A stretch of 64,000 nt of DNA from Brevibacillus laterosporus LMG 15441. GTDB taxonomy: Bacteria; Bacillota; Bacilli; Brevibacillales; Brevibacillaceae. Location: contig NZ_CP007806.1 in NCBI RefSeq assembly GCF_000219535.2, positions 2,080,501-2,144,500 of the forward strand, given 5' to 3'. Shown piece after piece: positions 12,218 to 64,000 of this stretch. The notes beneath the pieces were generated by a model that was not told where the DNA came from, did no database searches, and worked only from the letters and a program-made list of their open reading frames with translations. Numbering within the stretch: the first letter of the stretch is position 1; each line of letters begins with the position of its first letter. The position numbers and the translations under genes were made by a program.

Positions 12218-12546
12218 TTCGAAGGTAGAAATACCTTTAATATATAAAAAAGGGATAGTGATATCCCTGTTAGCCTGGGAAGGTTTTTCCTAATAAAATC
12301 ATTGTTTTAATCTGTTCGCCGTTAACTACTATGAACCCTCTGTCACAATAAAGTGGCAGAGGGCTTTACGTTTGTGAGGAAAATTTAATTTCTAGCCATT
12401 GCATAATCTCCACGTCATCTCATGGAATGGGGACGTCTTGATGGCAAGTAAAATTCTTGATCCACTTTGTTAAACAGTATATCTGAACGGAAACAATGAA
12501 ATATATCAAAGCTCCTTTTACAAAATTAACAAATTAAAAATCCCTC
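12218..12546 (+). other. Non-coding spacer with two hairpins
   Basis: Two hairpins lie here. AGGGATA-GTGA-TATCCCT at about 12252-12269 has no T-tract. CCCTCTGTCAC pairs with GTGGCAGAGGG at 12336-12363 and is followed by a T-rich tail, making a plausible terminator for the acyl-CoA synthetase. The rest is AT-rich and I see no gene. Confidence 0.55.
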
Positions 12547-12583
12547 TTGACACTCATGGTTAGTTGTAACTATAATAGTTACA
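12547..12583 (+). promoter_or_regulatory. Strong promoter overlapped by an inverted-repeat operator for the Rrf2 regulator
   Basis: TTGACA (12547-12552) and TATAAT (12571-12576) with an 18-base spacer form a near-consensus sigma-A promoter. A perfect 19-base palindrome, TGTAACTAT-A-ATAGTTACA (12565-12583), covers the -10 element. The same TGTAAC-N7-GTTACA pattern recurs at 13056-13082, so it is very probably the binding site of the adjacent Rrf2 protein and implies autorepression. Confidence 0.8.
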
Positions 12584-12600
12584 TCGAGAGGGTGTCAGTA

Positions 12601-13038
12601 ATGAAAATAAGCAGCAGATTTTCCATAGCGGTTCACATTCTTTCGTTACTTTCTACAGCCAAGGATGCGCACTGCACATCGGAATGGATTGCTGGTAGCG
12701 TCGGAACGAATCCGGTTATCATTCGGAAAATACTCGGGCAACTAAAGAAAGCAGGATTGGCGGGCGTTCGAGCCGGTAAAGGCGGAGCTTTTTTACTTAA
12801 AGGGCTGGAAGAAGTTACGTTGCTGGATGTTTACCGGGCGGCGGAAGTCGTGGAGGAAGGGGAGCTCTTTCATCTCCATGAACAGCCGAATCCCGACTGT
12901 CCGGTCGGTGCGAACATTCAAGCCGTTCTGGAACTGATCGTAAGACGGGCCCAAAACGCCATGGAAGCGATTCTGGCTGACATAACGATGCATGAGCTGC
13001 TTTCCGAACTTGCCGAACATATGAACATGAAAAAGTGA
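12601..13038 (+). CDS. Rrf2-family transcriptional regulator (YwnA-like)
   Basis: A 145-residue DNA-binding protein with an N-terminal winged helix-turn-helix (ISSRFSIAVHILSLL, then PVIIRKILGQLKKAGL and RAGKGGAF wing), as in Rrf2 proteins. The only Cys near the sensory helix region is in NPDCPVG, so an Fe-S cluster of the IscR/NsrR three-Cys type is not evident; a thiol or metabolite sensor is possible. The ATG at 12601 follows GAGAGGG; the longer frame starts inside the operator. Its own promoter carries the probable operator, and a second copy precedes the next gene. Base composition is GC-richer than the flanks. Confidence 0.88.
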   Translation: MKISSRFSIAVHILSLLSTAKDAHCTSEWIAGSVGTNPVIIRKILGQLKKAGLAGVRAGKGGAFLLKGLEEVTLLDVYRAAEVVEEGELFHLHEQPNPDCPVGANIQAVLELIVRRAQNAMEAILADITMHELLSELAEHMNMKK

Positions 13039-13055
13039 ACCCATTTTTTTTGGAG

Positions 13056-13082
13056 TTGTTGTAACTTAAGTGGTTACAACAA
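13056..13082 (+). promoter_or_regulatory. Second inverted-repeat operator, before the DsbA-like gene
   Basis: TTGTTGTAAC and GTTACAACAA are perfect ten-base arms around a seven-base spacer. The core TGTAAC-N7-GTTACA equals that of the rrf2 operator, so both genes are probably controlled by the same Rrf2 protein. Confidence 0.75.
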
Positions 13083-13117
13083 AAAATCTCGAAATAAATG
13101 GAAAGGAGGTTCCCAGA

Positions 13118-13795
13118 ATGAAAGTGGAAGTTTGGTCCGATTTTGCTTGTCCTTTCTGCTACATCGGCAAACAACAGATCGAAGCGGCGCTTGATAAATT
13201 TGCGCACAAAGATGATGTTGAGGTTGTTTTTCGAAGCTTCGAGCTTGATCCGAAAGCACAGAGGGACGTGGATTACGACGTACATGACATGCTGGTCGCC
13301 AAGTACGGCATGAGCCGGGATCAAGCGATTGCGATGAACGAAAATCTTAGCAGTAAAGCGAAGGAAGTCGGGCTTACATTCCAATTTGACACCTTGATTC
13401 TGACGAACACATTCGATGCCCATCGGTTAGCGAAGTACGCATTCAAGCAAGGTAAAATGAACCCGATGACACAGGAACTGTTCCAGGCATACTTTACCGA
13501 CTCCCGGCATTTGGGCGACCACGAAACGCTGGTGGAATTAGCGGTGAAGGTCGGATTGGATCGCGATGAAGCGCTCAAGGTGCTTGCTGGTGATGATTAT
13601 TCCGTCGATGTTCGCTCGGATGAGGAAGAAGCAAGCCGGCTTGGCGTCAGTGGAGTGCCGTTTTTCGTCATCGACCGCAAATATGCCGTATCGGGGGCGC
13701 AGTCAACCGACATGTTTCTCAATGCTTTGCAGACGGCTTGGAAGGAATCGCAGTCGTTGAACGTGTCGGACGATGCCGGAAGTGAATCTGAGTGA
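13118..13795 (+). CDS. DsbA-family/FrnE-like thiol oxidoreductase
   Basis: A 225-residue thioredoxin-fold protein of the cytoplasmic FrnE/2-hydroxychromene-2-carboxylate-isomerase-like branch. The CPFC active site lies at about residues 12-15, right after the first strand, the helical insertion spans the middle, and the cis-Pro loop reads SGVPFF (about residue 183). No signal peptide is present, so it acts in the cytoplasm. GGAAAGGAGG precedes the ATG at 13118. Control by the upstream Rrf2-type operator suggests a response to thiol or disulfide stress (inference). Composition is GC-richer than the surrounding genes. Confidence 0.88.
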   Translation: MKVEVWSDFACPFCYIGKQQIEAALDKFAHKDDVEVVFRSFELDPKAQRDVDYDVHDMLVAKYGMSRDQAIAMNENLSSKAKEVGLTFQFDTLILTNTFDAHRLAKYAFKQGKMNPMTQELFQAYFTDSRHLGDHETLVELAVKVGLDRDEALKVLAGDDYSVDVRSDEEEASRLGVSGVPFFVIDRKYAVSGAQSTDMFLNALQTAWKESQSLNVSDDAGSESE

Positions 13796-13868
13796 GCAGC
13801 TTGTGCTGACGGCATTACGTTACGATTTTGATAACCGTTATTATTATTAGAGAGAGGGAGATTTACCG

Positions 13869-14798
13869 ATGTTTAGCAAGAAATCATCAATAGGAGTTAT
13901 TATGTTGCTTTGTTTCACGCTATTGCTGAGCGCATGCTCCAGTGAGCCGAGTAAGACGAATACCGCGAGCGAGGGAACTCAGAAACCGGCGGCTGAACTC
14001 AAGATCACGCCGTTCAACCCTGGAGAAAACGGGCTCTTCTCCGTCACATCTAGCCTGATCGAAGGGCCAAGCGAGGTGCTGCTCGTCGATGCTCAGTTCG
14101 AAAAGAGCAACGCCGCGCAACTGGTTAAGATGATCCGCGAAACCGGTAAGAAGCTGACTACAGTTTATGTCAGCCACCAGGATCCGGATTTCTATTTCGG
14201 TCTGTCGACGATCCGCGAGGCATTTCCTGATGTAAAGATCGTTGCCACCCCTGCTACAGTGGAAGGGATCAAGGCAACTATCAAGCTTAAGAGTGAATTC
14301 TGGGGTCCGCTCATGAAAGAAAACGCCCCAACTGCGATGATCGTCCCTGATGTCCTTGACGGGGATAAGCTAACGGTTGATGGCCAAACCGTGCAGGTGA
14401 TCGGTCTCGACGGTTCGGATCCGTCTCACACAGTCCTTTGGGTTCCGTCGAAAAAGACCATCTTGGGTGGTGTGCCGGTCTATGAGAACCTGCATGTCTG
14501 GATGGCAGACAACCAGACTCTAGAGAGCCGTGACCACTGGCGGGAGATTCTGGACCGAGTTCTCGCTCTGAAGCCTGAACGAGTTATCCCGGGCCATTTC
14601 ATGAACAAGAGCTCTGAAGATATATCCACCGTCACCTTCACCCGTGACTACATTACAAAATTTGATGCTGCGGCAAAGCAGGCCAAGAACTCCGCTGAGC
14701 TGATTGCAGCGATGAAGAAGGCCTATCCGGACTTAAAGAACATAAGTGATCTGGAAATGGGCGCTCAGGTAATCAAGGGTGAGCGTTCTTGGCCATAA
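13869..14798 (+). CDS. Metallo-beta-lactamase-fold lipoprotein with altered metal motif
   Basis: A 309-residue secreted lipoprotein: signal peptide with lipobox LLSAC (Cys about residue 18), then an MBL-fold domain with LLVDAQF, VYVSHQDPDFYFGL, GSDPSHTVLWV and VIPGHF segments. The canonical HxHxDH metal motif reads HQDPDF, so two of its His positions are Asp and Phe; the later His residues (in DPSHT and PGHF) remain. It may bind a single metal, bind differently, or be non-hydrolytic. It lies 73 bases after the DsbA-like gene in the Rrf2 cassette. Hand count gives 60 percent GC at 14041-14100 against about 40 percent outside. Confidence 0.82.
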   Translation: MFSKKSSIGVIMLLCFTLLLSACSSEPSKTNTASEGTQKPAAELKITPFNPGENGLFSVTSSLIEGPSEVLLVDAQFEKSNAAQLVKMIRETGKKLTTVYVSHQDPDFYFGLSTIREAFPDVKIVATPATVEGIKATIKLKSEFWGPLMKENAPTAMIVPDVLDGDKLTVDGQTVQVIGLDGSDPSHTVLWVPSKKTILGGVPVYENLHVWMADNQTLESRDHWREILDRVLALKPERVIPGHFMNKSSEDISTVTFTRDYITKFDAAAKQAKNSAELIAAMKKAYPDLKNISDLEMGAQVIKGERSWP

Positions 14799-14860
14799 TA
14801 TAACGCCGAAACCGCCCGTTAGATGCGGAGATGGTTAACTACTGTCTGCGGCTTATGAAG

Positions 14861-14887
14861 GCGCCCGGGTTTAGACCCGGGCGTTTT
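14861..14887 (+). terminator. Strong terminator closing the Rrf2 cassette
   Basis: CGCCCGGGT-TTAG-ACCCGGGCG is a perfect nine-pair GC-rich stem followed by TTTT. Confidence 0.88.
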
Positions 14888-14928
14888 CATGATTACGGTT
14901 TGCTCGGCGGGGATACGTCGATAATTTC

Positions 14929-15117
14929 TTATTGTAATCTATCATCAAACATTAATTGTATTTGAATACCGAACGGGTCTTCAATAATACCGTATGCTTT
15001 GCTAAACACATTTTTAGATAAAGGGATACAACGATTTAGAAAGGCGTCTCATATCTTGACATCATCGCTTTTAGCCCATAGAAATATGGTCAGACCAGGT
15101 GCAGGAGATTTATCTCT
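14929..15117 (-). pseudogene. VOC/glyoxalase-family gene remnant
   Basis: Read on the minus strand, one frame gives SPAPGLTIFLWAKSDDV, an in-frame TGA at 15049-15051, then a segment containing FSKAYGIIEDPFGIQIQL, and a stop at 14929. The tail pattern (aromatic, Gly, EDPFG, hydrophobic strand) is that of the last strands of vicinal-oxygen-chelate proteins. Only the C-terminal third remains, with another stop just upstream, so this is a decayed fragment. The similarity is from memory of the family pattern. Confidence 0.55.
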
Positions 15118-15120
15118 TAT

Positions 15121-15462
15121 TTAGCAGAGTCGAAAAGTTTTAATAGAAGAAGTGATATCATTAAAATCTTCGTGAATGTTGAAGAGATGGGAACGATTAC
15201 TTGAATTTTCAAGCAGCTTTTTTCTACCTGTAAAATTTATATGCTCATATAAAACAACAAGCGTTTTAGGTGCGACACGTACAGACGAAATTCTGTCGTT
15301 CCAAGCATCCCCCACGTATGACAATCTTTCTCCCGAGTTCAGAGTGAAAGAAGCACCTTTTCCGTCTATATGTTCAAAAAAACGATTCACACGATGCTGA
15401 ACTTCTACATAATGATACGGGTCATCATAATGCGGATTATAATCATACGGATTATAAAACAT
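15121..15462 (-). CDS. Beta-gamma-crystallin-fold, probable calcium-binding protein
   Basis: A 113-residue product. The first 35 residues are rich in Tyr, Asp, Asn, His and Pro (FYNPYDYNPHYDDPYHY). The rest is one beta-gamma-crystallin domain: Greek-key signature YEHINFTG and two calcium-clamp motifs of the (N/D)(N/D)xx(S/T)S type, NDRISS and NDITSS. Microbial members bind calcium tightly at these clamps. No signal peptide or membrane helix is seen. The ATG at 15462 follows GGAGAGGTG; an in-frame upstream start at 15516 lacks one. A spore-surface or stress role is possible but unproven. Confidence 0.8.
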   Translation of the reverse strand: MFYNPYDYNPHYDDPYHYVEVQHRVNRFFEHIDGKGASFTLNSGERLSYVGDAWNDRISSVRVAPKTLVVLYEHINFTGRKKLLENSSNRSHLFNIHEDFNDITSSIKTFRLC

Positions 15463-15846
15463 GAACACCTCTCCAATACTTTTTTGTAATTCATACACTG
15501 TATGCCTAATTGCCATATCTGTGCATTGACACAGGTATTTTTTTGAAATAGGAGGAAAGATGGGGAATAGGAGCTTTTTAAGAGGCCAGAGTTACCCAGA
15601 TCAGCTATTTTCTCAGTTCTCTTATCTGATATATTCTTTTTCAACAAGACCTTCGCGAATGAATAGATTTTGAGAAATTTACAAGCAGTAGGTTCTCCAG
15701 AGACGAAGAATAAGGAAGGAACTTTAATAGCGGGATTCTATATGAAAAAAGCTAGGAGAGCAAAATGAAAACCAATCATATGCTGTCAAGGAAATCTATT
15801 TATGCTAAAAACGAAGCTGTTTTGCGATGAGAGACTTATCATAATG
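15463..15846. other. AT-rich spacer, no supported gene
   Basis: About 380 bases between the crystallin gene and the leuCD terminator. The only start with a good ribosome site heads a 21-codon frame at 15765-15830, too short and featureless to call. The crystallin promoter presumably lies near its left end. Confidence 0.5.
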
Positions 15847-15878
15847 AAAAAAAGGGCCACCTGCTGGTGAACCCTTTT
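15847..15878 (-). terminator. Terminator of leuCD
   Basis: On the minus strand GGGTTCACC and GGTGGCCC pair around AGCA, and a run of seven T residues follows, 26 bases after the leuD stop. Confidence 0.75.
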
Positions 15879-15903
15879 CCTCTGTGTCTCAATTATTTAA
15901 TAC

Positions 15904-16497
15904 TTACCATGCAGGCATTTTTTGTTCATAAGCCACAATTTTGTCTTCTTGTTGTAAAGTAATTCCAATATCATCCAAACCATGTAACAAGCAATATCGG
16001 CGATAAGGATCTACCTCGAAAGGATAGGAGAGACCCCTGTCATCCTCTACTACTTGATTTTCTAAATCAATAGATAATGTATAGCCTTCAGTAGCTTCCG
16101 TACGTGTAAACAATTCCTCTACCTGTTGTTCTGTTAATTTGATTGGCAAAATTCCATTTTTAAAGCAGTTATTATAAAAGATATCTGCAAAGGACGGTGC
16201 AATGATTACTCTAAATCCAAAATCCAACAACGCCCAAGGTGCATGCTCGCGTGAGGAGCCACAACCAAAGTTATTGCGTGCAAGAAGAATCGTTGCTCCT
16301 TCATAACGCGGCTGATGGAGGACAAATGAATCAATTCGCTCGCCATCAATCGTAAAGCGCCATTCATAAAACAAGAATTGACCAAAGCCTGTACGTTCAA
16401 TGCGCTTTAAAAATTGTTTGGGGATAATAGCATCTGTATCAATATTGGCCCGATCAACGGGAGCAGCCAAACCAGTTACTTTTACAAATGGTTCCAT
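15904..16497 (-). CDS. leuD: 3-isopropylmalate dehydratase, small subunit
   Basis: LeuD pairs with LeuC to isomerise 2- to 3-isopropylmalate in leucine synthesis, in the cytoplasm. The 197 residues match the family; the aconitase swivel-domain signatures [12 protein letters not shown] (about residue 21), [16 protein letters not shown] (about 75) and [13 protein letters not shown] are intact. It begins 132 bases after the leuC stop in the same direction. leuA and leuB are not in the window, so leuCD stands apart from them. Confidence 0.95.
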
Positions 16498-16629
16498 GGA
16501 TAGTGCCTCCTTTTACATGTAGGGATGAGCTTATGCTTTTCTCCAACAAAATTACCTGTTACATCTTGAATGACTCAACGATTGCAAGATAAGCTGTTTA
16601 CTTGCAAATGTCGAAGTCCTAACGTCTAT

Positions 16630-18048
16630 TCACACGACAGAAGCAGTGTTTAGCCATTGGCGGACATCAACGAATCTACCTTCGACCGCGGCGGCAACCG
16701 CCATTTCAGGACTCACAAGATGTGTGCGTCCATCGCGTCCTTGTCGGCCTTCAAAGTTACGGTTAGAGGTGGAAGCGCAACGCTCACCTGGTGACAAAAT
16801 ATCTGGATTCATCGCAAGACACATGGAGCAACCAGATTCCCGCCACTCAAAGCCAGCCTCAATGAAGATTTGATGTAATCCTTCTTGTTCAGCACGTTCC
16901 TTGACTGCTTGTGACCCTGGCACGACCATGGCATTAACCTTGGAGGATACCTTGCGACCTTTAGCTACTGCAGCGGCACGGCGTAAATCTTCAATCCGTC
17001 CGTTTGTACAGGAGCCAATAAACACACGATCAATAGCGATTTCGGTCATGGGAGTACCTGCAACTAATCCCATATAAGAAAGGGCATCTCGTGCCGCCTT
17101 TTGTTCGGTTTGGCTCATAAATTCTTCAGGAAGAGGGACATTCCTAGTGATGCCGGTTCCCATACCGGGACTAGTTCCCCAGGTTACTTGTGGCTCAATC
17201 TCGCTTGCATGAAGCTCAATGTAAGCATCATATTCGGCACCTTCATCCGTCACCAACTCTTTCCATACAGCAACAGCTTGGTCAAATGCTTCTCCTTGAG
17301 GAGCATGCCGGCGACCTTTTAAGTATGCGAAAGTAGTATTATCCGGAGCGATCAGACCTGCACGTGCTCCAGCCTCAATGGACATGTTACAAACTGTCAT
17401 CCGTTCTTCCATTGTCAATTGACGAATAGCTTCCCCTGTATATTCAATAACATAGCCTGTGGCAAAGTCAGTGCCGAATTTTGCGATAATAGCCAAAATT
17501 AAATCTTTCGCAGAGACACCTAGTGGCATTGGACCTTTGACATGGACTTCCATTGTTTTTGGTTTTGCTTGCTGCAAGCATTGAGTTGCCAATACATGTT
17601 CCACCTCACTGGTTCCGATGCCAAAAGCAAGAGCACCAAAAGCGCCATGTGTAGAGGTATGACTATCTCCACAAACAATTGTCTTACCCGGATGAGTTAA
17701 CCCAAGTTCGGGTCCAATGACGTGAACAATTCCTTGATCTGGGCTGTCTAAATCTGCAAGTGGTACTTCGAAATCTCGACAGTTATTAGTTAAGGTCTCC
17801 ATCTGTGTTAGTGAAATGGGGTCTTCTACAAGATAGCGGTTCTTCGTGGGCACATTGTGATCCATCGTTGCAAAAGTAAGATCAGGACGGCGTACCTTCC
17901 GATTAGCTAGACGTAAACCTTCAAAAGCCTGTGGGGAGGTTACTTCATGTACTAAATGTAAATCGATATATAATAAGCTAGGTTTTCCCGGTTCTTCGTG
18001 AATGACGTGCTGATCCCAGATTTTTTCAAAAAGTGTGCGTGCTTTCAT
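16630..18048 (-). CDS. leuC: 3-isopropylmalate dehydratase, large subunit
   Basis: The 472-residue large subunit carries the 4Fe-4S cluster that takes part in dehydration and hydration of isopropylmalate. Visible signatures are [14 protein letters not shown] (about residue 130), FIGSCTNGR and [10 protein letters not shown], which supply the three cluster cysteines. GGAGAGG precedes the ATG. It is the first gene of a minus-strand leuCD unit that starts back to back with a LysR regulator gene. Length and motifs are complete, so it should be active with LeuD. Confidence 0.96.
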
Positions 18049-18146
18049 CGTATTTCCTCTCCTCTACATTGTAATCGCGTTCCTGCTTTTTTTTAGTTGT
18101 ATCATGGATAAGTAAATAGCACAAAGATATAATGATTATAGAATGG

Positions 18147-18161
18147 ATAGGAATTACCTAT
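18147..18161. promoter_or_regulatory. T-N11-A inverted repeat between leuC and the LysR gene
   Basis: ATAGG-AATTA-CCTAT is a 15-base palindrome of the T-N11-A class typical of LysR operators. It lies 41 bases before the LysR start and 99 bases before leuC. A TATAAT at 18128-18133 is a candidate -10 for the LysR gene. Confidence 0.55.
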
Positions 18162-18201
18162 ATGTATGGAAAGAAGCAACGAATAGGTGGTGGAGACAGA
18201 G

Positions 18202-19104
18202 ATGGAATTGCGACAAATAAGATATGTGTTGATGGTAGCTCAAGAAAAAAGCTTTTCTCGTGCAGCGGAGAAGCTTCATTTAGCACAACCATCACTTAGT
18301 CAACAAATTGCAAAATTAGAACGTGAGTGGGGTGTTCTGTTGTTTCAGCGGTTGCCACAACGAGTCGAGCTAACTGATGCGGGCCATCGATTTCTACAAT
18401 TAGCCACTCAGCTCATTGTGAAAGCAGATGCATTAGAACGTGAAATGGTTCAATTTGCAGAAGGGAACGCGGGGAGAATCGTAGTTGGTAGCCTTCCGAT
18501 CACAGGGGCGTTTGTGTTGCCGGAAGCTTTTTCAGCCTTTACGAAACGCTATCCTCGCATCGAGGTTACTTTAATAGAAGACACATCTAGCAACCTGGAG
18601 CAAATGCTGGTGAATGGGAAGCTGGATATGAGCTTGCTAACAATGCCGATACAACATCCAGCAATAGTAACAACGCAGGTATTACAGGAGGAAATATATT
18701 TATCCTTACCACCTCAGCATCCATTTGCGGAGGAGCCGGTTGTTGAATTAAAGGCATTGGCAGATGAACCATTTATTCTGTTAAAAGAGGGGCAAGGATT
18801 TCGTACCATCTCACTCACATTGTGCGAGCAGGCTGGTTTTATGCCTAAAGTAGTGTTTGAAAGCTCCAACATTCAGACGGTGCAAGCTTTAGTAGCATCA
18901 GGCATGGGAGTTTCTTTTGCGCCTCATATGATTACAGGTTCAATGAACGGTAACGTCTGTCCCGCTTATGTGCATCTATTAACGCGCCCTAATCGAACCT
19001 TAGTAGTCGCATCCCATAAAGATAAGCATTTATCTGCTCCAATGCTAGCATTACGCGAAGAGATAGCCTTAGCCGGAAAGCAGTACTCACTAAACCTGGT
19101 GTAG
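18202..19104 (+). CDS. LysR-family transcriptional regulator
   Basis: A 300-residue regulator with an N-terminal winged helix-turn-helix ([34 protein letters not shown]) and a C-terminal periplasmic-binding-like effector domain (about residues 90-290). The ATG at 18202 is preferred over two upstream GTG codons because it matches the usual family N-terminus and follows a G-rich site. Divergent placement next to leuC, with a LysR-type palindrome between, suggests that it controls leuCD; the effector is unknown. Confidence 0.88.
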
Positions 19105-19168
19105 AGACAAAAAAGTAGCAGGTGTGTTACACTATCAACAAAACATCATGGAAAGGAAGGATACATAC

Positions 19169-19507
19169 ATGAAAGAGATTAAAACAGAAGAAGCATTCCA
19201 AGAAGCCATTCGTTCTTCCAAACCGGTTGTAGTTAAATTTTATACGACCTGGTGCCCTGACTGCTTTCGGATCGACCCGTTTATGCCGGAGTTAGAGGAA
19301 GCCTATAAAGAACAATTGGATATGATAGCAGTTAACCGTGATGACCTTCCTGAATTGTCTCAGCAGTTAGAGATCATGGGTATCCCTAGCTTTGTTACGT
19401 TCAAGAATGGCAAGGAAGTTATACGTTTTGTAAGCAAATTAGCTAAAAGTCGTGAAGAGATCGAGCAATTTTTAGATCGTTCCGTGCAAATTAGCGCAGA
19501 ACTTTAA
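19169..19507 (+). CDS. Thioredoxin-family protein (CPDC)
   Basis: A 112-residue single-domain thioredoxin-like protein with active site WCPDC (about residues 28-32) and cis-Pro loop MGIPSF (about residue 72). No signal peptide, so it is cytoplasmic. The CPDC pair differs from the CGPC of TrxA, so a specialised partner is likely. The ATG at 19169 follows GGAAAGGAAGG; the longer frame from 19124 has no ribosome site. It is encoded by an independent gene between LysR and GDPD. Confidence 0.87.
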
Positions 19508-19636
19508 AGCAAAAATTCGCTCTCAAAAATGTAAGGACGTTATAGCTTTTGCAAACAATTTGAGCAGATTTTGCTGAAAATGCTCATAACTATAAGCAAT
19601 GAGGGAAAACTGGAGTTCTTTCAAGGAGGGTTGAGC

Positions 19637-20377
19637 TTGCGAAGCAATGTATGCATCGCGCACCGGGGTTGGTCAGGAGTTGCTCCAGAAAATACTTTGG
19701 CGTCTATCCGAATGGCACTTGAACACCCAAACATAGATGGGATTGAATTTGATGTTCAACTGACAAAGGACCAAATTCCTGTGGTTATTCACGACTATTC
19801 GTTGGGACGTACCACGAATGGAACTGGATGGGTTAAGGATCATACGTTTGCAGAGTTGCGTTCTCTCGATGCAGGCGGTTGGTTCAACAAGCAATTTGTC
19901 GGCGAGACGATTCCTTCCTTGGAAGAAGTGCTCATTGCCAATCGTGAGAAAAAATGGCTCAATATAGAGCTAAAGCAGATGGTGGCAAGCAAGGAGCAGG
20001 TGCTGGAAGAAAAAGTGATCCGTTTAATCGAACAGTATGATATGGAAGAGCATGTGATCATTACATCATTTCAACATCAGAGCGTCTATCACGTAAAAAG
20101 ATTGGCTCCACGATTGCAGGTGGGACCATTGATTTATGGAATGCCACTTTTATTGCACGAACAAGCCCAGCATATCGGGGCCGACGTGTTATCGCTCGCG
20201 TATCCTTATCTGACCCAAGAGATTGCGGACCAAGCGAGGGATTGGGGATTTCATATCATAGCTTGGACGATAGATGATCCAGAACATATGCGACAGGTAG
20301 CTGAATTTGGATCGCATGTGCATATCTGCACCAATCATCCCGATAGATGGTTTTCAAAGAAAGGAAGTACGGTATGA
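19637..20377 (+). CDS. Glycerophosphodiester phosphodiesterase
   Basis: A 246-residue GDPD-family TIM-barrel enzyme that releases glycerol-3-phosphate from deacylated phospholipids. The catalytic HRGWSG (about residue 10), PENT, GIEFDVQLTKD and VVIHD motifs are intact. No signal peptide is seen, so this is a cytoplasmic UgpQ-type form. I place the start at the TTG at 19637, six bases after AAGGAGGG; the ATG at 19571 lies before that site. The stop overlaps the next gene's ATG, indicating coupling. Confidence 0.88.
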   Translation: MRSNVCIAHRGWSGVAPENTLASIRMALEHPNIDGIEFDVQLTKDQIPVVIHDYSLGRTTNGTGWVKDHTFAELRSLDAGGWFNKQFVGETIPSLEEVLIANREKKWLNIELKQMVASKEQVLEEKVIRLIEQYDMEEHVIITSFQHQSVYHVKRLAPRLQVGPLIYGMPLLLHEQAQHIGADVLSLAYPYLTQEIADQARDWGFHIIAWTIDDPEHMRQVAEFGSHVHICTNHPDRWFSKKGSTV

Positions 20378-56859: not shown

Positions 56860-58287
56860 TTGTTGACAAAGAAAAAATGGATACAGGCGCTTTCGGGTAT
56901 GCTACTACTTACATGTCTTACTCCTTACCCTAATGTACAAGGGGGAGACACACACCAAGGCTTACAAGAAACTTACTCAGAACAGCGTACAACTCAATAT
57001 AATTTACAGAAAAAACAAATAATGTTCTCCAATCAGGATCGTTATTGGATCGAACGGATACAATCTAGACCAGGCGTAAAGCAAATCAAGCAAAAAATTT
57101 CCCTGTTTATTCCCGGAACGCAAGGGGAATTCCGCTATCTTACAAGCAATGGGGCCAAAACGAAATGGACGAAAGCATCTTTACAGGGAAACTTACCTGT
57201 ACATACCGGGTATATCAAGACAGATCAGTATTCGATCATTTTAAGTAAACCACATATTTATATACCACGGACACATAATTCAATTGAGATTGTACCTAAA
57301 AATATGAATCAAATTAAAATGATTGCGAAAAAGACATATGGTGGTTTTAACGTGAGTATTGAAATGCCAGTGGAATCTCATATGTTTGGAGAAGTGTGGG
57401 CATTAGAATCGTTTCAACCATTAATTGACTGGGATGCACTAAATATGGAGCTTATCTGGAAAAGTATTGATTTTGAAGATCGGTTACGCTGGAGCTGGGA
57501 TGGTTTTTACGATCGAACACCCACTACATATGTTCCTACAGGTCCCAATTATTTCTGGCGCAATCCCGATAACTATTTTGCTACTTCTTTTGTGATTACG
57601 CGAGGAAGTAGGGCAGCGCATGATCTTGGCTGGATGATGCTTCACACTATTTTGCCAAATCAAAATGCACAAGGATTTTGGCCATCAGCTCCTAAATCAA
57701 CATGGTTATGGAATGATTACCAAGTAGATGCTGGGTTTTATGATACACGATTTAATACGGATATTGCCTATTTGTTATTGAAAGCGTATCAATCTTATCA
57801 TGATGAACGATTATTACAAGCAAGTATGCGGTATGCGGAGTTTCTCTTACAGCATAGCCAGCAAAATCATTTTCTAATTGAAAGAAATGGTCAAGTAGGG
57901 ATATTAGTAAGTGATTATTCCCATGAAAAGCCACATAAATTAACTCATAGCTCCTTGAACCATCAATTACAGGAGATGAATTATCTGTATGAGTTATATA
58001 TGCAAACAAAAGACGAGCGATTCAAAGAGCTTGCAGATAAAATGCTGTGGGGAATTAAATTAACGCGGGATGCTTGGGTGATGCCAAATTCTAACTTACA
58101 TTATGCATATATGCCTGATGGTACGATGGGACTTAAAGATTATCCATTCCTGACGTATAATGATCTGCATGCCGTTCAAAGTGTTCTATTGCTTATACAA
58201 GGCTGGGAAGATCCCGACTTAGCTTATTTAATGCAAATGAAAAAGCAATGGATGGATGCAAATAACGTGACAGGTTATAGAAAATAG
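56860..58287 (+). CDS. Secreted D-glucuronyl C5-epimerase-like protein
   Basis: A 475-residue exported protein with a signal peptide (MLTKKKWIQALSGMLLLTC then a Pro/Gly region). The N-terminal half is beta-rich; the C-terminal part (about residues 260-470) is an alpha/alpha toroid with WPSAPKSTWLWNDYQVDAGF, NTDIAYLLLKAYQ, SSLNHQLQEMNYLYELY and MLWGIKLT segments recalling the C-terminal domain of glucuronyl C5-epimerases. Such enzymes act on uronic-acid polymers. The start is a TTG after GAGGTGA. It is a single gene; polysaccharide partners are not seen. The family call is tentative. Confidence 0.58.
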   Translation: MLTKKKWIQALSGMLLLTCLTPYPNVQGGDTHQGLQETYSEQRTTQYNLQKKQIMFSNQDRYWIERIQSRPGVKQIKQKISLFIPGTQGEFRYLTSNGAKTKWTKASLQGNLPVHTGYIKTDQYSIILSKPHIYIPRTHNSIEIVPKNMNQIKMIAKKTYGGFNVSIEMPVESHMFGEVWALESFQPLIDWDALNMELIWKSIDFEDRLRWSWDGFYDRTPTTYVPTGPNYFWRNPDNYFATSFVITRGSRAAHDLGWMMLHTILPNQNAQGFWPSAPKSTWLWNDYQVDAGFYDTRFNTDIAYLLLKAYQSYHDERLLQASMRYAEFLLQHSQQNHFLIERNGQVGILVSDYSHEKPHKLTHSSLNHQLQEMNYLYELYMQTKDERFKELADKMLWGIKLTRDAWVMPNSNLHYAYMPDGTMGLKDYPFLTYNDLHAVQSVLLLIQGWEDPDLAYLMQMKKQWMDANNVTGYRK

Positions 58288-58360
58288 GTAAGCGTCTGCA
58301 AGTTGCATAAGCATGAAGAAGCGCTGTGAGAACGAGAACTAAAACTAAATAAGGTACGAG

Positions 58361-58390
58361 GCAAGGGCGTAGGCTCTTGCTTTTTTTTTT
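58361..58390 (+). terminator. Terminator of the epimerase-like gene
   Basis: GCAAGGGC-GTAG-GCTCTTGC (one G-T pair) is followed by ten T residues. Confidence 0.88.
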
Positions 58391-58416
58391 GCATTTTTTT
58401 GATCCAACAAATAAAA

Positions 58417-58464
58417 GACGAAATGCTTATTTGGAGATAAACGCCAAATGGGGAGCACTTCGTC
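58417..58464 (-). terminator. Long hairpin, terminator of the Spo0E-like gene
   Basis: GACGAAATGCT pairs with AGCACTTCGTC (one mismatch), enclosing ATTTGG/CCAAAT. On the minus strand it continues as TTTTATTTG, 84 bases after the Spo0E-like stop. Confidence 0.65.
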
Positions 58465-58547
58465 AGGGTTTTGTCTGTTTGTTCATGTTTTTCCTCCATT
58501 TATCATGGGCAGCGAGATTGAGTTTCTAATGAATTGAGTTTTGTCTG

Positions 58548-58796
58548 TTAGGCGTATTGCCAAAGAAGGCTGGGTGAGAAAAATGAGGTTGAGTGAATTT
58601 TTCTTTTTTGCATCTGCAAGATGTAGGTATCCAAAGTTTGACTCAGGTGAATAACCGAGTGATCTAAAAAGCTACCCTTTTCTGATACTAATTGAACCAA
58701 CTCATTTTTTAATTGATTAATTACGTTTTGTAGCTCGATTTCATCCTCTAAGGGCTCAGGGACATTTGTCCGTATTTTTAGCTGTTTTGGTTCCAT
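58548..58796 (-). CDS. Spo0E-like aspartyl-phosphate phosphatase
   Basis: An 82-residue protein whose core is the Spo0E-family helical hairpin: IELQNVINQLKNELVQLVSE, then SVIHLSQTLDTYILQMQ with the SQxLD signature. Members dephosphorylate Spo0A-phosphate and delay sporulation. AGAGGAGAAA precedes the ATG. A perfect 0A box (TGTCGAA on the minus strand) lies about 95 bases upstream of the start, so feedback by Spo0A is plausible. It ends with a hairpin terminator. Confidence 0.83.
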   Translation of the reverse strand: MEPKQLKIRTNVPEPLEDEIELQNVINQLKNELVQLVSEKGSFLDHSVIHLSQTLDTYILQMQKRKIHSTSFFSPSLLWQYA

Positions 58797-58890
58797 CGAA
58801 TTTTTCTCCTCTCATCTTTTTCTTACCCTTACTATATCTAGCGTATCAAAGGAAAAGGACTTATTCGTTAATTAGAAACGTTTTACAGCC

Positions 58891-58897
58891 TTCGACA
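58891..58897 (-). promoter_or_regulatory. Spo0A-box-like sequence upstream of the Spo0E-like gene
   Basis: TTCGACA on the plus strand is TGTCGAA on the minus strand, the exact Spo0A box core. A seven-base match is expected by chance several times in 64 kb; its position before a Spo0E gene gives it weight. Confidence 0.45.
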
Positions 58898-59670
58898 GTC
58901 GTCGTCCGGTTTCTTTCAGACATAATTCTACAGATGCTCACTAGTAATATTGTTATTTTGTATAACATTCATATAAGATAAAAAAGTTAAAAAATAAAAA
59001 CATGATACGATGTCGTCTGCATCCTGAAAACACTCGATTTCATCTGATAATTACACCGTTACATAAGCATATTGCTGATGGAGATTCGCGGTTTCTAATG
59101 TGGTTTGCGTTAATTTTTATTATGATTCTAAAAAAGTAAATAAACAAACAGAGCCTTCTTTTTACAATGTCATCAGCAGACAAAACCGCCAAAATAAGAA
59201 AATGTCGAGTGAATTGGTAATTCTGCTTTTTTCTACTTTGTTTTCCACATATAAAGTGGGATGTCGGAATAATACTCTGTTATCCTGTCAAAGTTTTTCG
59301 AATTACTTCGAATGGATGGATTTTAGGAGAGGTTCAGCAGTGGCTAGCAGTGGGGAAGTCACATGAGAGACGGTTTTCGAATGAGGGTTCATATTCGATG
59401 GTATAGTGATATACATTCATCAGAAATCAGATGGATTTGTTACTGACATATAGTGAAATATTAAGCTTTCGTGACATGATTTTATTTATATTTACTAACA
59501 TGACATTTTGTGGTAACTTTAGTTTGCAACTAGCAAATGAAGTAAAAATTAACATTTTATCAACGGAATAAAACAGATATGAACAAGGCTGAAAAACATT
59601 AAGGCTGAGGGCTGTTAACACTCAGTTGCATTAGATGAATAGGTATTTAGAAGCGAAAGCTGGTGATTTC
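58898..59670. other. Long gene-free region before the natural-product genes
   Basis: About 770 AT-rich bases between the Spo0E-like gene and the ligase gene. Frames at 58766-58981 and 59100-59366 lack ribosome sites and look like chance. TGTCGAG (about 59213) and TGTCGGA (about 59263) resemble degenerate 0A boxes. The promoter of the biosynthetic genes must lie here; no clear sigma-A pair was chosen. Confidence 0.5.
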
Positions 59671-61137
59671 ATGATTTATCAACATTTGAAGCAACGAAAC
59701 GACAATAACCCTCATGCAATAGCCATTATCAAAGAGACAGAAGAGATACCTAATCAGGCTGTGGTAAGGGAAGTAGATCATCTGATTCGAAATTTTCAAA
59801 AATTTGGCTTGAATAAAGAGACGCCTCTAGCCATTGTTCTCCAAAAAAGTGAAGTTATCTGGGCAGCGATCATAGCCGCTAGTCATCTGGAAATTTCGGT
59901 CATGTTAGTTGATCCTCATTTAAAAGAAGAGGAAATGCAGAAGATCATGACAATGTATCAAACAGATTATGTACTGCGTGAAATAAATAGTAAGTCAATA
60001 GATTCACTTGGAGACAATGAATGGTACGAGCTTTCCTGTTTTGAGCATGTTTTTTTAATTGGGAATATAGGCGAGCATGCAGCGTGTTGGAACGAATACT
60101 TAAAGCCAGAGGTAAATCAGAGCCATCTGGTGTTTCTAACGTCCGGATCAACCAAGATACCGTCAGCAGTGGTTAAAAAAATGGAAAGCTTTATGCTTGA
60201 TGGAAAACGAATAGGTGAGGCTCTTGGAATTGTCCCTGAAGATCGTATCTTATGTGCAGCACCCACCTATCATATTTATGGCACAATTTGTGGATGCTTT
60301 GTTCCTTTCTTATGTGGAGCATCGGTATCGTTTACTGGTGCGTATGTTTTACCATCTAGCTTGGAAAAGAAAATAGACAAGCAGGCATGTAATATACTAA
60401 TGGCTGTACCTGCCCATTATAAAATGCTGGTGGAGCATGTTCAGAAGCCGCTGGATCGGATTAGGATTGCTTTATCAGCAACTTCTCCATTGCAAGATGA
60501 CCTGATGTTGACCTGTAAGGAAAAATTGAACCTATCAATCCAAAACATATATGGGTCTTCAGAAGCAGGGGTTGTTTCCATTCAACGCAATCCTCAATCT
60601 ATCGGCGAAGCTACTAACGTAGGCGTTCCTGTTGATGGCGTAGATGTAATGCTTGATGAGACGAGTCCATTTGAATTTGATGGAAAGACGGTTTATGAAG
60701 TACTTATCAAAAGCGATTCGCTTGCTAAGGGATACTTGCGTAAGGATGAGGTGGATGATAGTGGTTATGTAGTAGAGGATGGATGGTGGAGAACTGGGGA
60801 TTTGGCCTATTTAAGTAAAGAGAATGAGCTTCATCTGGTTGGACGTCTGAATATTACAATAAATGTGAATGGTAAAAAAGTGAATCCGTATGAAATTGAG
60901 GAGGTACTAAGTCAGCATCCAGCAATAGAAGATTCAGTAGTGGTTGGCGAACATGACCCTATCCGTGGGGAAATGGCGGTAGCCTATGTAGTAGTTAAAA
61001 ATCACATTGCGGAAGCAGAGTTACTAGAATATTGTCGTGCAAAACTATCTGATTTCAAAGTACCAAGACGAATTGAATTTCGAGATGATTTACCTAAAAC
61101 GGCGGCAGGCAAGGTACGTCGAAAAGAAGTGAGATAG
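59671..61137 (+). CDS. AMP-dependent acyl ligase (adenylation enzyme) of a natural-product locus
   Basis: A stand-alone adenylating enzyme of about 488 residues that would activate a carboxylic acid as acyl-AMP and load it onto CoA or the carrier protein encoded next. Motifs: LVFLTSGSTKIPSAV (about residue 152, divergent from TSGTTGxPKG), IYGSSEAG (about 292), GWWRTGDLA, NGKKVNPYEIEEVL and PKTAAGKVRRKEV with the catalytic Lys. The ATG at 59671 follows GGTGA; an ATG at 59635 has no ribosome site. The carrier gene starts 25 bases downstream, so they form an operon. Confidence 0.85.
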   Translation: MIYQHLKQRNDNNPHAIAIIKETEEIPNQAVVREVDHLIRNFQKFGLNKETPLAIVLQKSEVIWAAIIAASHLEISVMLVDPHLKEEEMQKIMTMYQTDYVLREINSKSIDSLGDNEWYELSCFEHVFLIGNIGEHAACWNEYLKPEVNQSHLVFLTSGSTKIPSAVVKKMESFMLDGKRIGEALGIVPEDRILCAAPTYHIYGTICGCFVPFLCGASVSFTGAYVLPSSLEKKIDKQACNILMAVPAHYKMLVEHVQKPLDRIRIALSATSPLQDDLMLTCKEKLNLSIQNIYGSSEAGVVSIQRNPQSIGEATNVGVPVDGVDVMLDETSPFEFDGKTVYEVLIKSDSLAKGYLRKDEVDDSGYVVEDGWWRTGDLAYLSKENELHLVGRLNITINVNGKKVNPYEIEEVLSQHPAIEDSVVVGEHDPIRGEMAVAYVVVKNHIAEAELLEYCRAKLSDFKVPRRIEFRDDLPKTAAGKVRRKEVR

Positions 61138-61162
61138 CTTAAGACAAAAGGGGCGAACCAAC

Positions 61163-61438
61163 GTGGGAACTACAAATTCAACAGACTACGGTCTAGTCAT
61201 TAAAAATGATCTGGCGGAGATTATAAAATCACATTATGGTCAGGAAGTTGATCCCGCTAGTATTTCAAACGACCTAGATATTATCAAACAATATAATTTA
61301 GATTCCATTGTTATTATGGAATTGCTAGTAACGATCGAAAAGCGATTTGATATTCAAATAGAAGATGATGAGCTTAGTTCAGAATTAGTACGGACAATTC
61401 ATACGGTAGTGACTTATATTCAGTCGAAAAAAAGATAA
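61163..61438 (+). CDS. Free-standing acyl carrier protein
   Basis: A 91-residue carrier protein with the phosphopantetheine attachment Ser48 in YNLDSIVIMELL and acidic helices typical of ACPs. It starts at a GTG with AGGGGCG upstream. It is not the housekeeping AcpP: the sequence around the site (LDSI) and the neighbours indicate a role in specialised biosynthesis. It must be converted to its active form by a phosphopantetheinyl transferase such as the Sfp-type enzyme at 8.0 kb (inference). Confidence 0.92.
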   Translation: MGTTNSTDYGLVIKNDLAEIIKSHYGQEVDPASISNDLDIIKQYNLDSIVIMELLVTIEKRFDIQIEDDELSSELVRTIHTVVTYIQSKKR

Positions 61439-61454
61439 AGAGGGAGTCCTTGAT

Positions 61455-63329
61455 ATGTGCGGGATAACAGGCTGGATCGATTGGGAACATAACTTGTTGC
61501 ATCAAAAGCATATTTTACAGCAGATGTCTGATTCTATTCGTCATCGGGGACCAGATGCTGAAGGATGTTGGATCACGGAACACGCAGCATTAGCACATCG
61601 GCGTTTAATAGTGATTGACCCTGAGGGCGGGGTTCAACCCTTTATCTATCACGAGTCTGAGCCTTTATATGCTATGACTTATAATGGGGAGATTTATAAT
61701 TATCTAGAACTACGTCGTGAATTAATTGAACGAGGACATCGATTTAAAACCAATTCTGACACGGAAGTATTACTACATGCTTACATGGAATGGTCAGAAG
61801 ATTGTGTCAAACATTTGAATGGTATTTTTGCCTTTGCGATTTGGGATCAGGTGAAGCAGAGTCTGTTTTTAGCACGAGATCATTTAGGCGTTAAGCCCTT
61901 ATTTTATTATCAACAAGGAAGCTCCATTTTATTTGGATCTGAAATAAAGGCAATTCTGGCTCACCCAGAAGTGAAACGCGAAGTTGATGTTCAAGGATTA
62001 GCTGAATTAATTGCTCTTGGTGGCATACGTACGCCTGGCAATGGGATTTTTTCAAATATTTTCGAAGTAAAGCCTGCTCATTCCATAACTTTTACAAAGG
62101 AAAGAACAAGAGAGACCCGATATTGGCAGCTCCAGAGTAAGTTGCATACTGAAACGGCAACAGAAACTGCTGATCATATCAGATATTTGCTAGAAGATAC
62201 AGTTAAGCGCCAATTAATTGCTGATGTTCCGGTTGTATCCATGCTTTCAGGTGGATTGGATTCAAGCGGCTTAGTTTCGATTGCGGGACGTCAATTTTTT
62301 GATAAAGGTCAGCAGTTATCTACATACTCAGTTGACTTTGTAGGAAGTGATCAGGATTTTGTAGCGGATAAAGCTCGTCCTAGTTTAGATGCACCGTATG
62401 CAAAAATGCTGTCTGAGTACGTGGGAACGAAGCACCATTTTATAACGCTTACCTCTGAAGAATTGCTCGAAAATTTACTTATCCCCATGCGTATGCGTGA
62501 TTTACCCGGCTATGGCGATATGGAAACATCCTTACACTTATTATGTAAGGAGATGAAGAAGGATGCTACGGTAGCTATTTCAGGTGAGTCGGCAGACGAA
62601 ATATTTAGCGGGTATCCATGGTTCCACCAAGAAGAATATTTGGACTCTCGTATGTATCCATGGCTGTTAAACACATGGGATAAATTTGCCTCTTTATTAC
62701 AGCAGGATGTGATAGAGGGCATTCAACCAAATCATTATGCAACGATGAGATACGCTGAAGCGACGAAGGAAGTACCACTGCTTGAAAATGAAACAATAAC
62801 ACAGATGCATCAACGCAGAATGTCATACTTATTCATCACTCGATTTTTAGTCGGTTTATTGGAGCGCAAGGATCGGGCAAGTATGTATGCGGGCTTTGAG
62901 GTACGTGTTCCTTTTTGTGATTACCGTTTAGTGGAGTATGCATTTAATATTCCATTTGAGCTGAAGACCGTGGGGAACATCGAGAAAGGTATACTTCGTC
63001 AAGCCTTCCTAGGTTCGATACCAGAAGAAGTACGACTTCGTAGAAAGAGCGCTTATCCATCTACCCAAGACCCAGTCTATTTCACAGGTGTTCAGTCTAT
63101 CTTTCAAGAGATCATGTCAAATCCGAATGCACCTCTTCATGATTTATTGGATAAAAAGAAAGTGATGCATGTAGTAGGTGGGAACTCCTCGCTCTTGCAG
63201 GGAAAAATGCACTCTAGTCAAGGATTGTTACTCAAGCTAATGGAGTACTTTATTCAAGTAAATATGTGGCTAAGCGAATATAAAATTGTGCTACAATCCG
63301 CTAACCGTAATCTACACGGCTCAATGTAA
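61455..63329 (+). CDS. Asparagine-synthase-type glutamine amidotransferase in a natural-product locus
   Basis: A 624-residue AsnB-family enzyme. The class-II glutaminase domain begins with the catalytic Cys (MCGITGWID) and has HRRLIVID and TYNGEIYNYLELR. The synthetase domain has the ATP pyrophosphate loop SMLSGGLDSSGL (about residue 265) and ISGESADEIFSGYPWF. It would convert a carboxylate to a primary amide using glutamine. AGGGAG precedes the ATG, 16 bases after the carrier gene. Given the neighbours, the target may be an acid bound to the carrier protein rather than free aspartate. Confidence 0.9.
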   Translation: MCGITGWIDWEHNLLHQKHILQQMSDSIRHRGPDAEGCWITEHAALAHRRLIVIDPEGGVQPFIYHESEPLYAMTYNGEIYNYLELRRELIERGHRFKTNSDTEVLLHAYMEWSEDCVKHLNGIFAFAIWDQVKQSLFLARDHLGVKPLFYYQQGSSILFGSEIKAILAHPEVKREVDVQGLAELIALGGIRTPGNGIFSNIFEVKPAHSITFTKERTRETRYWQLQSKLHTETATETADHIRYLLEDTVKRQLIADVPVVSMLSGGLDSSGLVSIAGRQFFDKGQQLSTYSVDFVGSDQDFVADKARPSLDAPYAKMLSEYVGTKHHFITLTSEELLENLLIPMRMRDLPGYGDMETSLHLLCKEMKKDATVAISGESADEIFSGYPWFHQEEYLDSRMYPWLLNTWDKFASLLQQDVIEGIQPNHYATMRYAEATKEVPLLENETITQMHQRRMSYLFITRFLVGLLERKDRASMYAGFEVRVPFCDYRLVEYAFNIPFELKTVGNIEKGILRQAFLGSIPEEVRLRRKSAYPSTQDPVYFTGVQSIFQEIMSNPNAPLHDLLDKKKVMHVVGGNSSLLQGKMHSSQGLLLKLMEYFIQVNMWLSEYKIVLQSANRNLHGSM

Positions 63330-63402
63330 ACATTGAGATACCAGCACAATATTGAGTAGGTAAGACTAATCTTTATTCAATTCTACCTTGAGGTGTTTCC
63401 AG

Positions 63403-64000
63403 ATGAGTCCATCGCTTGTATTTATGTATTCGGGTCAAGGCTCGCAGTATTATCAAATGGGAAAAGCCTTATTTGAACACAATCGAATTTTTAGATCGTG
63501 CATGAATGAATTAGATGCGAAAGCGCGCGAGCTGATTGGCATATCGGTACAGAGTGAGTTGTATAGGACCAATAGGAACATGACCGAGCCTTTTACTCGT
63601 ACGCTGCATACGCATGTGTGTATTTTTATGGTGGAATATGCCACTACGATGGTTCTATTAGAAAATGGAATGGTCCCAGATGCTGTTATTGGTGTGAGTA
63701 TGGGGGAATTTGCAGCATCGGTAGCAGCAGGTGTATGTAGTGTGGATACGGCACTCAAATCCGTTGTGAAGCAGGCACAATTACTAGAAAAACATTGTGA
63801 TGTAGGGGCTATGTTAGCTATTTTGGATCGTCCGTCCCTTTTCTTGTCTGATCCGGTGTTATATGAGAATAGCGAATTGGTTTCTATTCATAACGAGAAT
63901 CATTTTATTGTATCAGGTAGAAAAGAACATATGGCGATGATTGAACAGCATGCGAAGAAAAATGGAATCATGTGTAGCAAATTACCGGTTACTCATGGAT
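63403..64000 (+). CDS. Free-standing acyltransferase (malonyl-CoA:ACP transacylase fold), 3' truncated by window
   Basis: The frame from the ATG at 63403 (GAGGTG upstream) stays open to the window end, giving 199 codons of a family near 290-320. It begins with SLVFMYSGQGSQYYQMGKAL, the acyltransferase N-terminus, and has the nucleophile elbow GVSMGEFAAS (Ser about residue 91), where Val replaces the usual His of GHSxGE. The end reads KLPVTHG, approaching the catalytic His region. Free-standing ATs of this kind serve trans-AT polyketide synthases as loader or as proofreading hydrolase. It follows the amidotransferase gene by 73 bases. Confidence 0.85.
   Translation, partial: MSPSLVFMYSGQGSQYYQMGKALFEHNRIFRSCMNELDAKARELIGISVQSELYRTNRNMTEPFTRTLHTHVCIFMVEYATTMVLLENGMVPDAVIGVSMGEFAASVAAGVCSVDTALKSVVKQAQLLEKHCDVGAMLAILDRPSLFLSDPVLYENSELVSIHNENHFIVSGRKEHMAMIEQHAKKNGIMCSKLPVTHG

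What the first reader, a model, noticed from the sequence alone, without database searches (positions are those of the whole stretch)
59671..64000. Start of a natural-product locus: ligase, carrier, AsnB amidotransferase, free acyltransferase
Four consecutive genes encode an AMP-ligase, a lone ACP, an AsnB-type amidotransferase and a free-standing AT. Families: trans-AT polyketide systems use lone ATs, and AsnB-type enzymes with a lone ACP make malonamyl-type amide starters in glutarimide polyketides. Inference: this locus builds an amide-bearing starter unit on the ACP, before a PKS or NRPS assembly line beyond 64 kb.
Basis: partly seen in the sequence, partly recalled or inferred. Interest (0 to 1): 0.75.

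Follow-up and report, generated by a model that had tools for sequence, protein, structure and literature searches.

The report
Known basiliskamide antifungal gene cluster
The four genes are the left end of an already published gene cluster with which Brevibacillus laterosporus is thought to make the antifungal basiliskamides, so the finding is real but largely explained: the amide most likely caps the end of the molecule and does not start it.

Summary
The four genes are real; the fourth is one 1102-aa AT-AT-ER protein that runs past 64 kb. The own genome shows what follows: four PKS proteins without AT domains (5 KS), a free condensation enzyme and a phenylalanine ammonia-lyase (PAL), ending at 96795 in extended coordinates. 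Contig sizes match B. laterosporus LMG 15441 and its two plasmids. This is the published putative basiliskamide cluster (PMC3940840); LMG is listed with 95% of its genes (PMC6978878). The trans-AT PKS prediction is right. The amide-starter (glutarimide) reading is not supported: the assembly line has its own AprA-MT1/GNAT loading unit, and the assigned product is a cinnamate-esterified polyketide amide. Best reading: PAL makes cinnamate, ligase and lone ACP activate and carry it, the condensation enzyme esterifies the chain, and the AsnB-like enzyme makes the terminal carboxamide; these substrates are inferred. Small additions here: the ligase-ACP pairing, the AprA-type loading methyltransferase that could explain the extra methylene of a known analogue, and a sister AsnB clade, seen at another PKS/NRPS locus in the 2 of 7 genomes examined. 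Interest low.

The parts
59635..61137 (+). AMP-forming acyl ligase, 500 aa; proposed cinnamate:ACP ligase
   Evidence: PF00501 and PF13193; A10 lysine motif PKTAAGK present, A3 loop reads TSGSTKIPS
61163..61438 (+). Lone acyl carrier protein, 91 aa; proposed cinnamoyl carrier
   Evidence: PF00550 E 7.4e-08; Ser in YNLDSIV
61455..63329 (+). AsnB-like glutamine-dependent amidotransferase, 624 aa; proposed terminal carboxamide synthase
   Evidence: PF00733, PF13537; best PDB match 7ylz, 475 bits; tree
63388..64000 (+). 5' part of the AT-AT-ER gene (1102 aa, ends at 66696 in extended coordinates). The cluster goes on outside the window, extended coordinates: PKS1 66736-73455, PKS2 73499-79498, PKS3 79545-89903, PKS4 89909-93721, condensation enzyme 93725-95104, PAL 95137-96795, terminator-like hairpin 96829-96857
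   Evidence: PF00698 in two stretches, TIGR02814 PfaD above its cut-off; GVSMGE and GHSLGE; downstream genes, hairpin

Best explanation
This is the 5' end of the basiliskamide A/B cluster of Brevibacillus laterosporus, most likely strain LMG 15441. Mechanism: the AT-AT-ER protein charges the ACPs with malonyl. The MT1/GNAT/ACP loading unit of PKS1 decarboxylates malonyl to acetyl (or, after methylation, to propionyl). Five KS domains extend it: module 1 is fully reducing and methylating, module 2 leaves a hydroxyl and adds a methyl, module 3 leaves a hydroxyl, modules 4 and 5 form the diene through a split dehydrating bimodule. The result is a C12 chain with two methyl branches. The TE-like domain releases the acid, and the AsnB-like enzyme activates its carboxyl and adds ammonia from glutamine. 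The lyase deaminates phenylalanine to cinnamate, the ligase loads it on the lone ACP, and the free condensation enzyme esterifies the C9 or C7 hydroxyl. Shown here: gene content, domains, motifs. Published: assignment of such a cluster to basiliskamides by genomics, and PAL activity of a B. laterosporus lyase (BlPAL). Inferred: substrates of ligase, ACP, AsnB-like and condensation enzyme, the order of steps, the chain structure.
For: Contigs of 5,114,147, 32,617 and 7,095 bases match LMG 15441, 5.11 Mb with plasmids of 32,617 and 7,095 bp (PMC6978878 passages), where LMG is listed with 95% of the basiliskamide genes. The features named for the PE36 cluster in PMC3940840 (tandem AT, GNAT loading, MT, ER, KS pair apart from DH and KR, amide gene, condensation, adenylation) are all found. 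The lyase has the PAL pair Phe-Leu; BlPAL was assayed as PAL and linked to basiliskamide cinnamate (PMC5651878). At the thresholds used, ligase, condensation enzyme and lyase each occur in 3 of 39 genomes of the order, the same three, at this locus. Five KS plus acetyl gives C12, and C12 plus C9 cinnamoyl fits the '21 membered carbon skeleton' with ester at C9 or C7 (PMC5100339; the sum is mine).
Against: No knock-out or product detection is known to me for LMG 15441, and PE36 DNA was not compared. PMC8739492 counts the condensation domain of basiliskamide as a product-release domain, not as an ester-forming side enzyme. The 7ylz match of AsnB is not specific: the own conserved copy is as close to 7ylz (40.8% against 40.3%). 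The ligase A3 loop is unusual, no specificity code was read, and its best PDB matches are oxalyl-CoA and other ligases. The lone ACP was not checked in the relatives.
Confidence: 0.8

Rival explanations
1. One reading: AT, lone ACP and AsnB-like enzyme build a malonamyl-type amide starter, as proposed for glutarimide PKSs, and hand it to the assembly line.
For: AT, ACP and an asparagine synthetase homologue are the conserved glutarimide trio, and gladiostatin GdsB is also an AH-AT-ER fusion (PMC7756379 passages). All three genes are adjacent here.
Against: PKS1 begins with its own MT1/GNAT/ACP loading unit; PMC8302727 lists GNAT decarboxylation and transamidation as separate initiation strategies of trans-AT PKSs. 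Module 1 has six domains, not seven. The trio would leave ligase, PAL and condensation enzyme unexplained.
Confidence: 0.03
2. Same cluster, other division of labour: the condensation enzyme releases the chain or works on another bond, the AsnB-like enzyme acts on an ACP-bound chain, or the ligase-ACP pair handles another acid.
For: PMC8739492 (passage) cites basiliskamide as having a condensation domain for product release. PMC3940840 gives the cinnamate to an adenylation domain without naming a carrier in the passages seen.
Against: PKS4 ends in a TE-like alpha/beta hydrolase with GTSWGG, so release needs no condensation domain. PAL in the same row supplies cinnamate.
Confidence: 0.15
3. The AsnB-like enzyme is an ordinary asparagine synthetase that merely lies in the cluster.
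For: NCBIfam asn_synth_AEB passes its cut-off (505.8 against 267.1 bits); the subfamily includes the conserved copies.
Against: The genome has a separate copy (42.9% identical) of the kind found in 39 of 39 genomes and a third, distant one. The window's copy groups 100/100 with seven copies of another genus; the two of these seven examined lie next to PKS/NRPS genes.
Confidence: 0.02

Closest known systems
Putative basiliskamide cluster of B. laterosporus PE36 (cluster 12 in PMC3940840)
   Same: Tandem AT, GNAT loading, MT, ER, KS pair apart from DH and KR, amide gene, condensation and adenylation genes, trans-AT PKS
   Different: PE36 DNA was not compared. The lone ACP, the AprA type of the loading methyltransferase and a PAL gene are not mentioned in the passages seen of that paper; the PAL link was made in PMC5651878
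Glutarimide PKSs (iso-migrastatin, lactimidomycin, cycloheximide, gladiostatin)
   Same: Adjacent AT, lone ACP and AsnB homologue; trans-AT PKS; AT fused to ER as in GdsB
   Different: Loading unit of AprA-MT1/GNAT type and another module 1; ligase, condensation enzyme and PAL present here
TsnB9-type hydroxyamidotransferase of trichostatin biosynthesis (PDB 7ylz; that 7ylz is a hydroxyamidotransferase is its PDB name, that it is TsnB9 is recalled)
   Same: Match over residues 1-574 of 624, 475 bits; TsnB9 is reported to modify trichostatic acid (PMC5719088, PMC13418202)
   Different: Only 40.3% identical, no closer than the own conserved AsnB copy; no N-oxygenase family was found among the 11 proteins of the row scanned with Pfam, so an amide and not a hydroxamate is expected
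AprA / CurA / GphF loading units
   Same: PKS1 residues 1-708 match PDB 7uci (638 bits); AprA MT1 6b39 (428), CurA GNAT 2ree (191) and GphF 6mfc (109) match parts of it
   Different: In a Brevibacillus trans-AT PKS; the stretch SFFNHDRP has Asn where AprA has Asp; activity unknown

Membership tests
trans-AT polyketide synthase | No AT domain in the modules; separate AT protein | tested here: met
   PF00698 found in the 1102-aa protein and in none of PKS1-4 at E 0.001
Basiliskamide cluster | Gene and domain set described for PE36 | tested here: met
   Each feature named in the passages of PMC3940840 was found
Basiliskamide cluster | Sequence identity to the PE36 cluster | not tested
   PE36 was not fetched; PMC6978878 lists LMG with 95% of genes
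Basiliskamide cluster | Cinnamate-forming PAL in the cluster | tested here: met
   PF00221 E 2.7e-169; ASG and Phe-Leu; activity known for BlPAL only from PMC5651878
Basiliskamide cluster | Product made by this strain | not testable with these tools
   needs culture and LC-MS
Glutarimide PKS | AT, lone ACP and AsnB homologue together | tested here: met
Glutarimide PKS | Seven-domain first module fed by the malonamyl-ACP | tested here: not met
   MT1/GNAT/ACP loading unit and module 1 KS-DH-KR + MT-ACP-ER, six domains; the exact list of the seven domains was not in the passages seen
Glutarimide PKS | AsnB groups with LtmD/MgsD/GdsD | not testable with these tools
   no such named sequence was reached
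Housekeeping asparagine synthetase | Groups with the AsnB copy conserved across the order | tested here: not met
   Separate branch with the seven copies of another genus, 100/100, in a 33-row tree; the program warns of long branches
TsnB9-type amidotransferase of a released polyketide acid | Closer to 7ylz than housekeeping copies are | tested here: not met
   40.3% against 40.8% for the own conserved copy
AprA/GphF-type loading unit | MT1 and GNAT-like domain before an ACP | tested here: met

The most novel reading that the evidence does not exclude
The AprA-type methyltransferase in the loading unit decides between two known antifungals: unmethylated malonyl is decarboxylated to an acetyl starter (basiliskamides), methylated malonyl to a propionyl starter (YM-47522, reported to have one more methylene in its chain). 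The same gene row carries a portable capping cassette, PAL, ligase, ACP and free condensation enzyme, that makes cinnamoyl-ACP and esterifies a polyketide hydroxyl.
Probability: 0.3. Interest if true: 0.35.

Novelty: already known. Interest (0 to 1): 0.15.

Why it matters
It suggests that an AsnB/ACP/AT trio alone is not a safe mark of glutarimide PKSs in genome mining. It offers simple tests (ligase and ACP with cinnamate, AsnB-like enzyme with the dienoic acid) for a pathway that, in the papers seen here, is assigned by genomics alone apart from the PAL.

Tried and rejected
Glutarimide/malonamyl starter: rejected on loading unit and module 1 (against 50, 80). Housekeeping AsnB: rejected by tree and by the presence of a conserved copy. 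TsnB9-like membership: the 7ylz match looked like support, but the conserved copies are as close to 7ylz.

Comparison with LtmD/MgsD led nowhere. The one genome-contig scan gave a single locus, B. laterosporus. The plasmid search gave 42 records; 15 were listed and 6 of these were opened. Four of the six had no annotation and were read only by ORFs and BLASTP against the cluster's own proteins, which missed the AsnB homologue itself in three of them. No glutarimide locus was recognised. One (Burkholderia stagnalis, L068) has a PKS-like gene beside the match; its product is unknown.

No Rfam family in 58000-60000. Promoter-like sites upstream were near the shuffle level, 7 against 5.4. Paper searches without a useful hit: GNAT/AprA/GphF, 0 papers; YM-47522, 1 unrelated paper. 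Whether the AprA type of this loading unit or the ligase-ACP pairing is in print was looked for only in the open library (listings) and in passages of the papers cited; subscription papers and supplements were not seen.

Full report
What is there. The window is bases 2,080,501-2,144,500 of contig C1 of its genome. The four genes of the finding are real: ligase 59635-61137, ACP 61163-61438, AsnB-like 61455-63329, and an AT that begins at 63388 (TTG) or 63403 (ATG) and leaves the window. The own genome supplied the sequence beyond 64 kb. In extended window coordinates the AT gene is a 1102-aa protein (to 66696) with two acyltransferase domains and a PfaD-type enoyl reductase. It is followed by PKS1 (66736-73455), PKS2 (73499-79498), PKS3 (79545-89903), PKS4 (89909-93721), a free condensation enzyme (93725-95104) and an aromatic amino acid lyase (95137-96795), with gaps of 3 to 46 bp. 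A terminator-like hairpin follows the lyase gene (96829-96857); the next gene, a glyoxalase-family protein, is 154 bp away from the lyase gene.

Domains. PKS1: AprA_N, AprA winged helix, AprA-type methyltransferase, GNAT, ACP, KS, DH, KR. PKS2: MT, ACP, ER, KS, KR. PKS3: MT, ACP, KS, KR, ACP, KS, KR, ACP, KS. PKS4: DH, ACP, ACP, KR, alpha/beta hydrolase (the GNAT rests, Pfam did not report it). A motif scan found Cys and both His motifs in all five KS, the Ser motif in the seven ACPs of PKS1-4, the condensation HHxxxDG, the TE-like GTSWGG and the lyase ASG. No AT domain was reported in PKS1-4.

Which organism. G000 has contigs of 5,114,147, 32,617 and 7,095 bases, 5,153,859 in all. PMC6978878 (passages) gives B. 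laterosporus LMG 15441 5.11 Mb and plasmids of 32,617 and 7,095 bp. The match is exact for both plasmids, so the window is most likely from LMG 15441. G030 shares the locus with the window at 93.0% nucleotide identity over 39.8 kb, G029 at 84.2%.

What is known. PMC3940840 (abstract and passages; part 2 of 3 of section 4) isolated basiliskamides A and B from B. laterosporus PE36 and assigned them, by genomics only, to a trans-AT PKS cluster with fused tandem ATs, GNAT loading, MT and ER domains, a dehydrating bimodule split so that two KS lie apart from DH and KR, and genes for an 'aminotransferase' (amide), condensation and adenylation (cinnamate). Each of these is found here. PMC5651878 (passages) assayed BlPAL of B. 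laterosporus as a PAL without activity on Tyr or His and linked it to the cinnamate of basiliskamides. PMC6978878 (passages) lists the cluster at 95% of genes in LMG, the first strain of a flattened table. PMC7930024 (one passage) lists basiliskamide among trans-AT PKSs. So the locus is already known.

How it works, as best inferred. An acetyl starter plus five extensions gives 12 carbons. Module 1 (KS-DH-KR + MT-ACP-ER) gives a methyl branch next to a CH2, module 2 (KS-KR + MT-ACP) a hydroxyl (C9) and a methyl, module 3 a hydroxyl (C7), modules 4 and 5 the 2,4-diene. PMC5100339 (passages) speaks of a 21-membered carbon skeleton with the cinnamate at C9 (A) or C7 (B); 12 + 9 = 21 is my reading of that number. 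PMC9329291 (passage) names basiliskamide A among molecules with a Z-acrylamide, which fits a carboxamide at the diene end. The full structure was not seen in any call. The AsnB-like enzyme is then the source of the terminal amide, as PMC3940840 supposed. The ligase and the lone ACP have no part in that amide in this scheme; with a PAL and a free condensation enzyme in the same row they are most simply a cinnamoyl activation and carrier pair. Against this, PMC8739492 (passage) counts the condensation domain as a release domain. At thresholds of E 1e-60, 1e-120 and 1e-130, ligase, condensation enzyme and lyase each occur in 3 of 39 genomes of the order, G000, G029 and G030, at this locus; in the larger genomes only 39 to 42 of up to 118 first-look candidates were scored for the ligase and the condensation enzyme. 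The same three genomes have the cluster's AsnB.

AsnB. Best PDB match is 7ylz, 'hydroxyamidotransferase', 475 bits over residues 1-574, against 170 bits for E. coli AsnB. TsnB9 is reported to act on trichostatic acid (PMC5719088, PMC13418202, passages); that 7ylz is TsnB9, and that trichostatic acid is a released polyketide dienoic acid, are recalled. This must not be over-read: the window's copy is 40.3% identical to 7ylz, the own conserved copy 40.8%. One short stretch, YPSTQD, is shared by the window's copy and 7ylz, whereas the conserved copies printed read YPKTHN and two of the sister copies YPMTYH. The tree used 31 of the 49 matches, plus a distant own paralogue and 7ylz, 33 rows. It puts the three cluster copies with seven copies of another genus, 100/100, apart from the kind of copy found in 39 of 39 genomes. 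The program warns that long branches meet there. Two of those seven loci, G005 and G024, were read: in both the AsnB lies directly downstream of a gene with condensation-domain similarity, with a PKS-like gene before it. In G005 that gene is an NRPS by Pfam, and a 3786-aa PKS upstream has KS, DH, KR and ACP domains and no AT at E 1e-10.

Why not an amide starter. But glutarimide PKSs are described with a seven-domain first module fed by that trio, whereas PKS1 here starts with an AprA-MT1/GNAT/ACP unit: residues 1-708 match 7uci (638 bits), and parts match AprA MT1 (428), CurA GNAT (191) and GphF (109). [quoted passage not shown] PMC10127204 (passages) describes GNAT domains of CurA and GphF as decarboxylases that give the starter. 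LtmD/MgsD sequences could not be reached.

What is added here. First, the pairing of ligase and ACP as a cinnamoyl cassette. Second, the AprA type of the loading methyltransferase: PMC10669366 (passages) says that 'YM-45722', which I take to be YM-47522, has one more methylene in its chain than basiliskamide A, and a propionyl starter would give that. Third, the sister AsnB clade. None of these was tested experimentally. Counter-signs: an unusual A3 loop in the ligase and DGSCL as the second DH motif in PKS4 (the usual motifs are recalled), and an Asn in place of Asp before the HDRP stretch of the loading methyltransferase compared with AprA.

Verdict. Observation confirmed; trans-AT part of the interpretation right; amide-starter part not supported; already known cluster; interest 0.15.

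Noticed in passing
Extended window coordinates about 72100-73455 and 78100-79498 (C-terminal parts of PKS1 and PKS2): The KR-containing C-terminal parts of PKS1 and PKS2 are 93.1% identical over 451 aa, which suggests recent duplication or gene conversion.
   Followed up: partly
G005:C1:1998330-2049102 (loci L055, L054, L045); similar in G024: Another large PKS/NRPS locus in a related genus ends with an AsnB of the sister clade, followed in G005 by a weakly condensation-like protein and a P450. It may make another amide-capped product; not identified.
   Followed up: partly
G029:C1, stretch L050, 12238-18964: PKS1 appears as two ORFs in G029 (1763 and 475 aa), either a real split or a sequencing error.
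   Followed up: no
L068 (Burkholderia stagnalis plas1), 9001-19842: An AsnB homologue (43% identical) lies beside a large PKS-like gene; product unknown.
   Followed up: no
Extended window coordinates 119019-123134: Three neighbouring ORFs share nearly the same N-terminal stretch and look like tandem flagellin copies by eye; no search was made.
   Followed up: no
window 58500-59634: A stretch of about 1.1 kb without a convincing gene precedes the ligase; no Rfam family and no promoter signal clearly above shuffles.
   Followed up: partly
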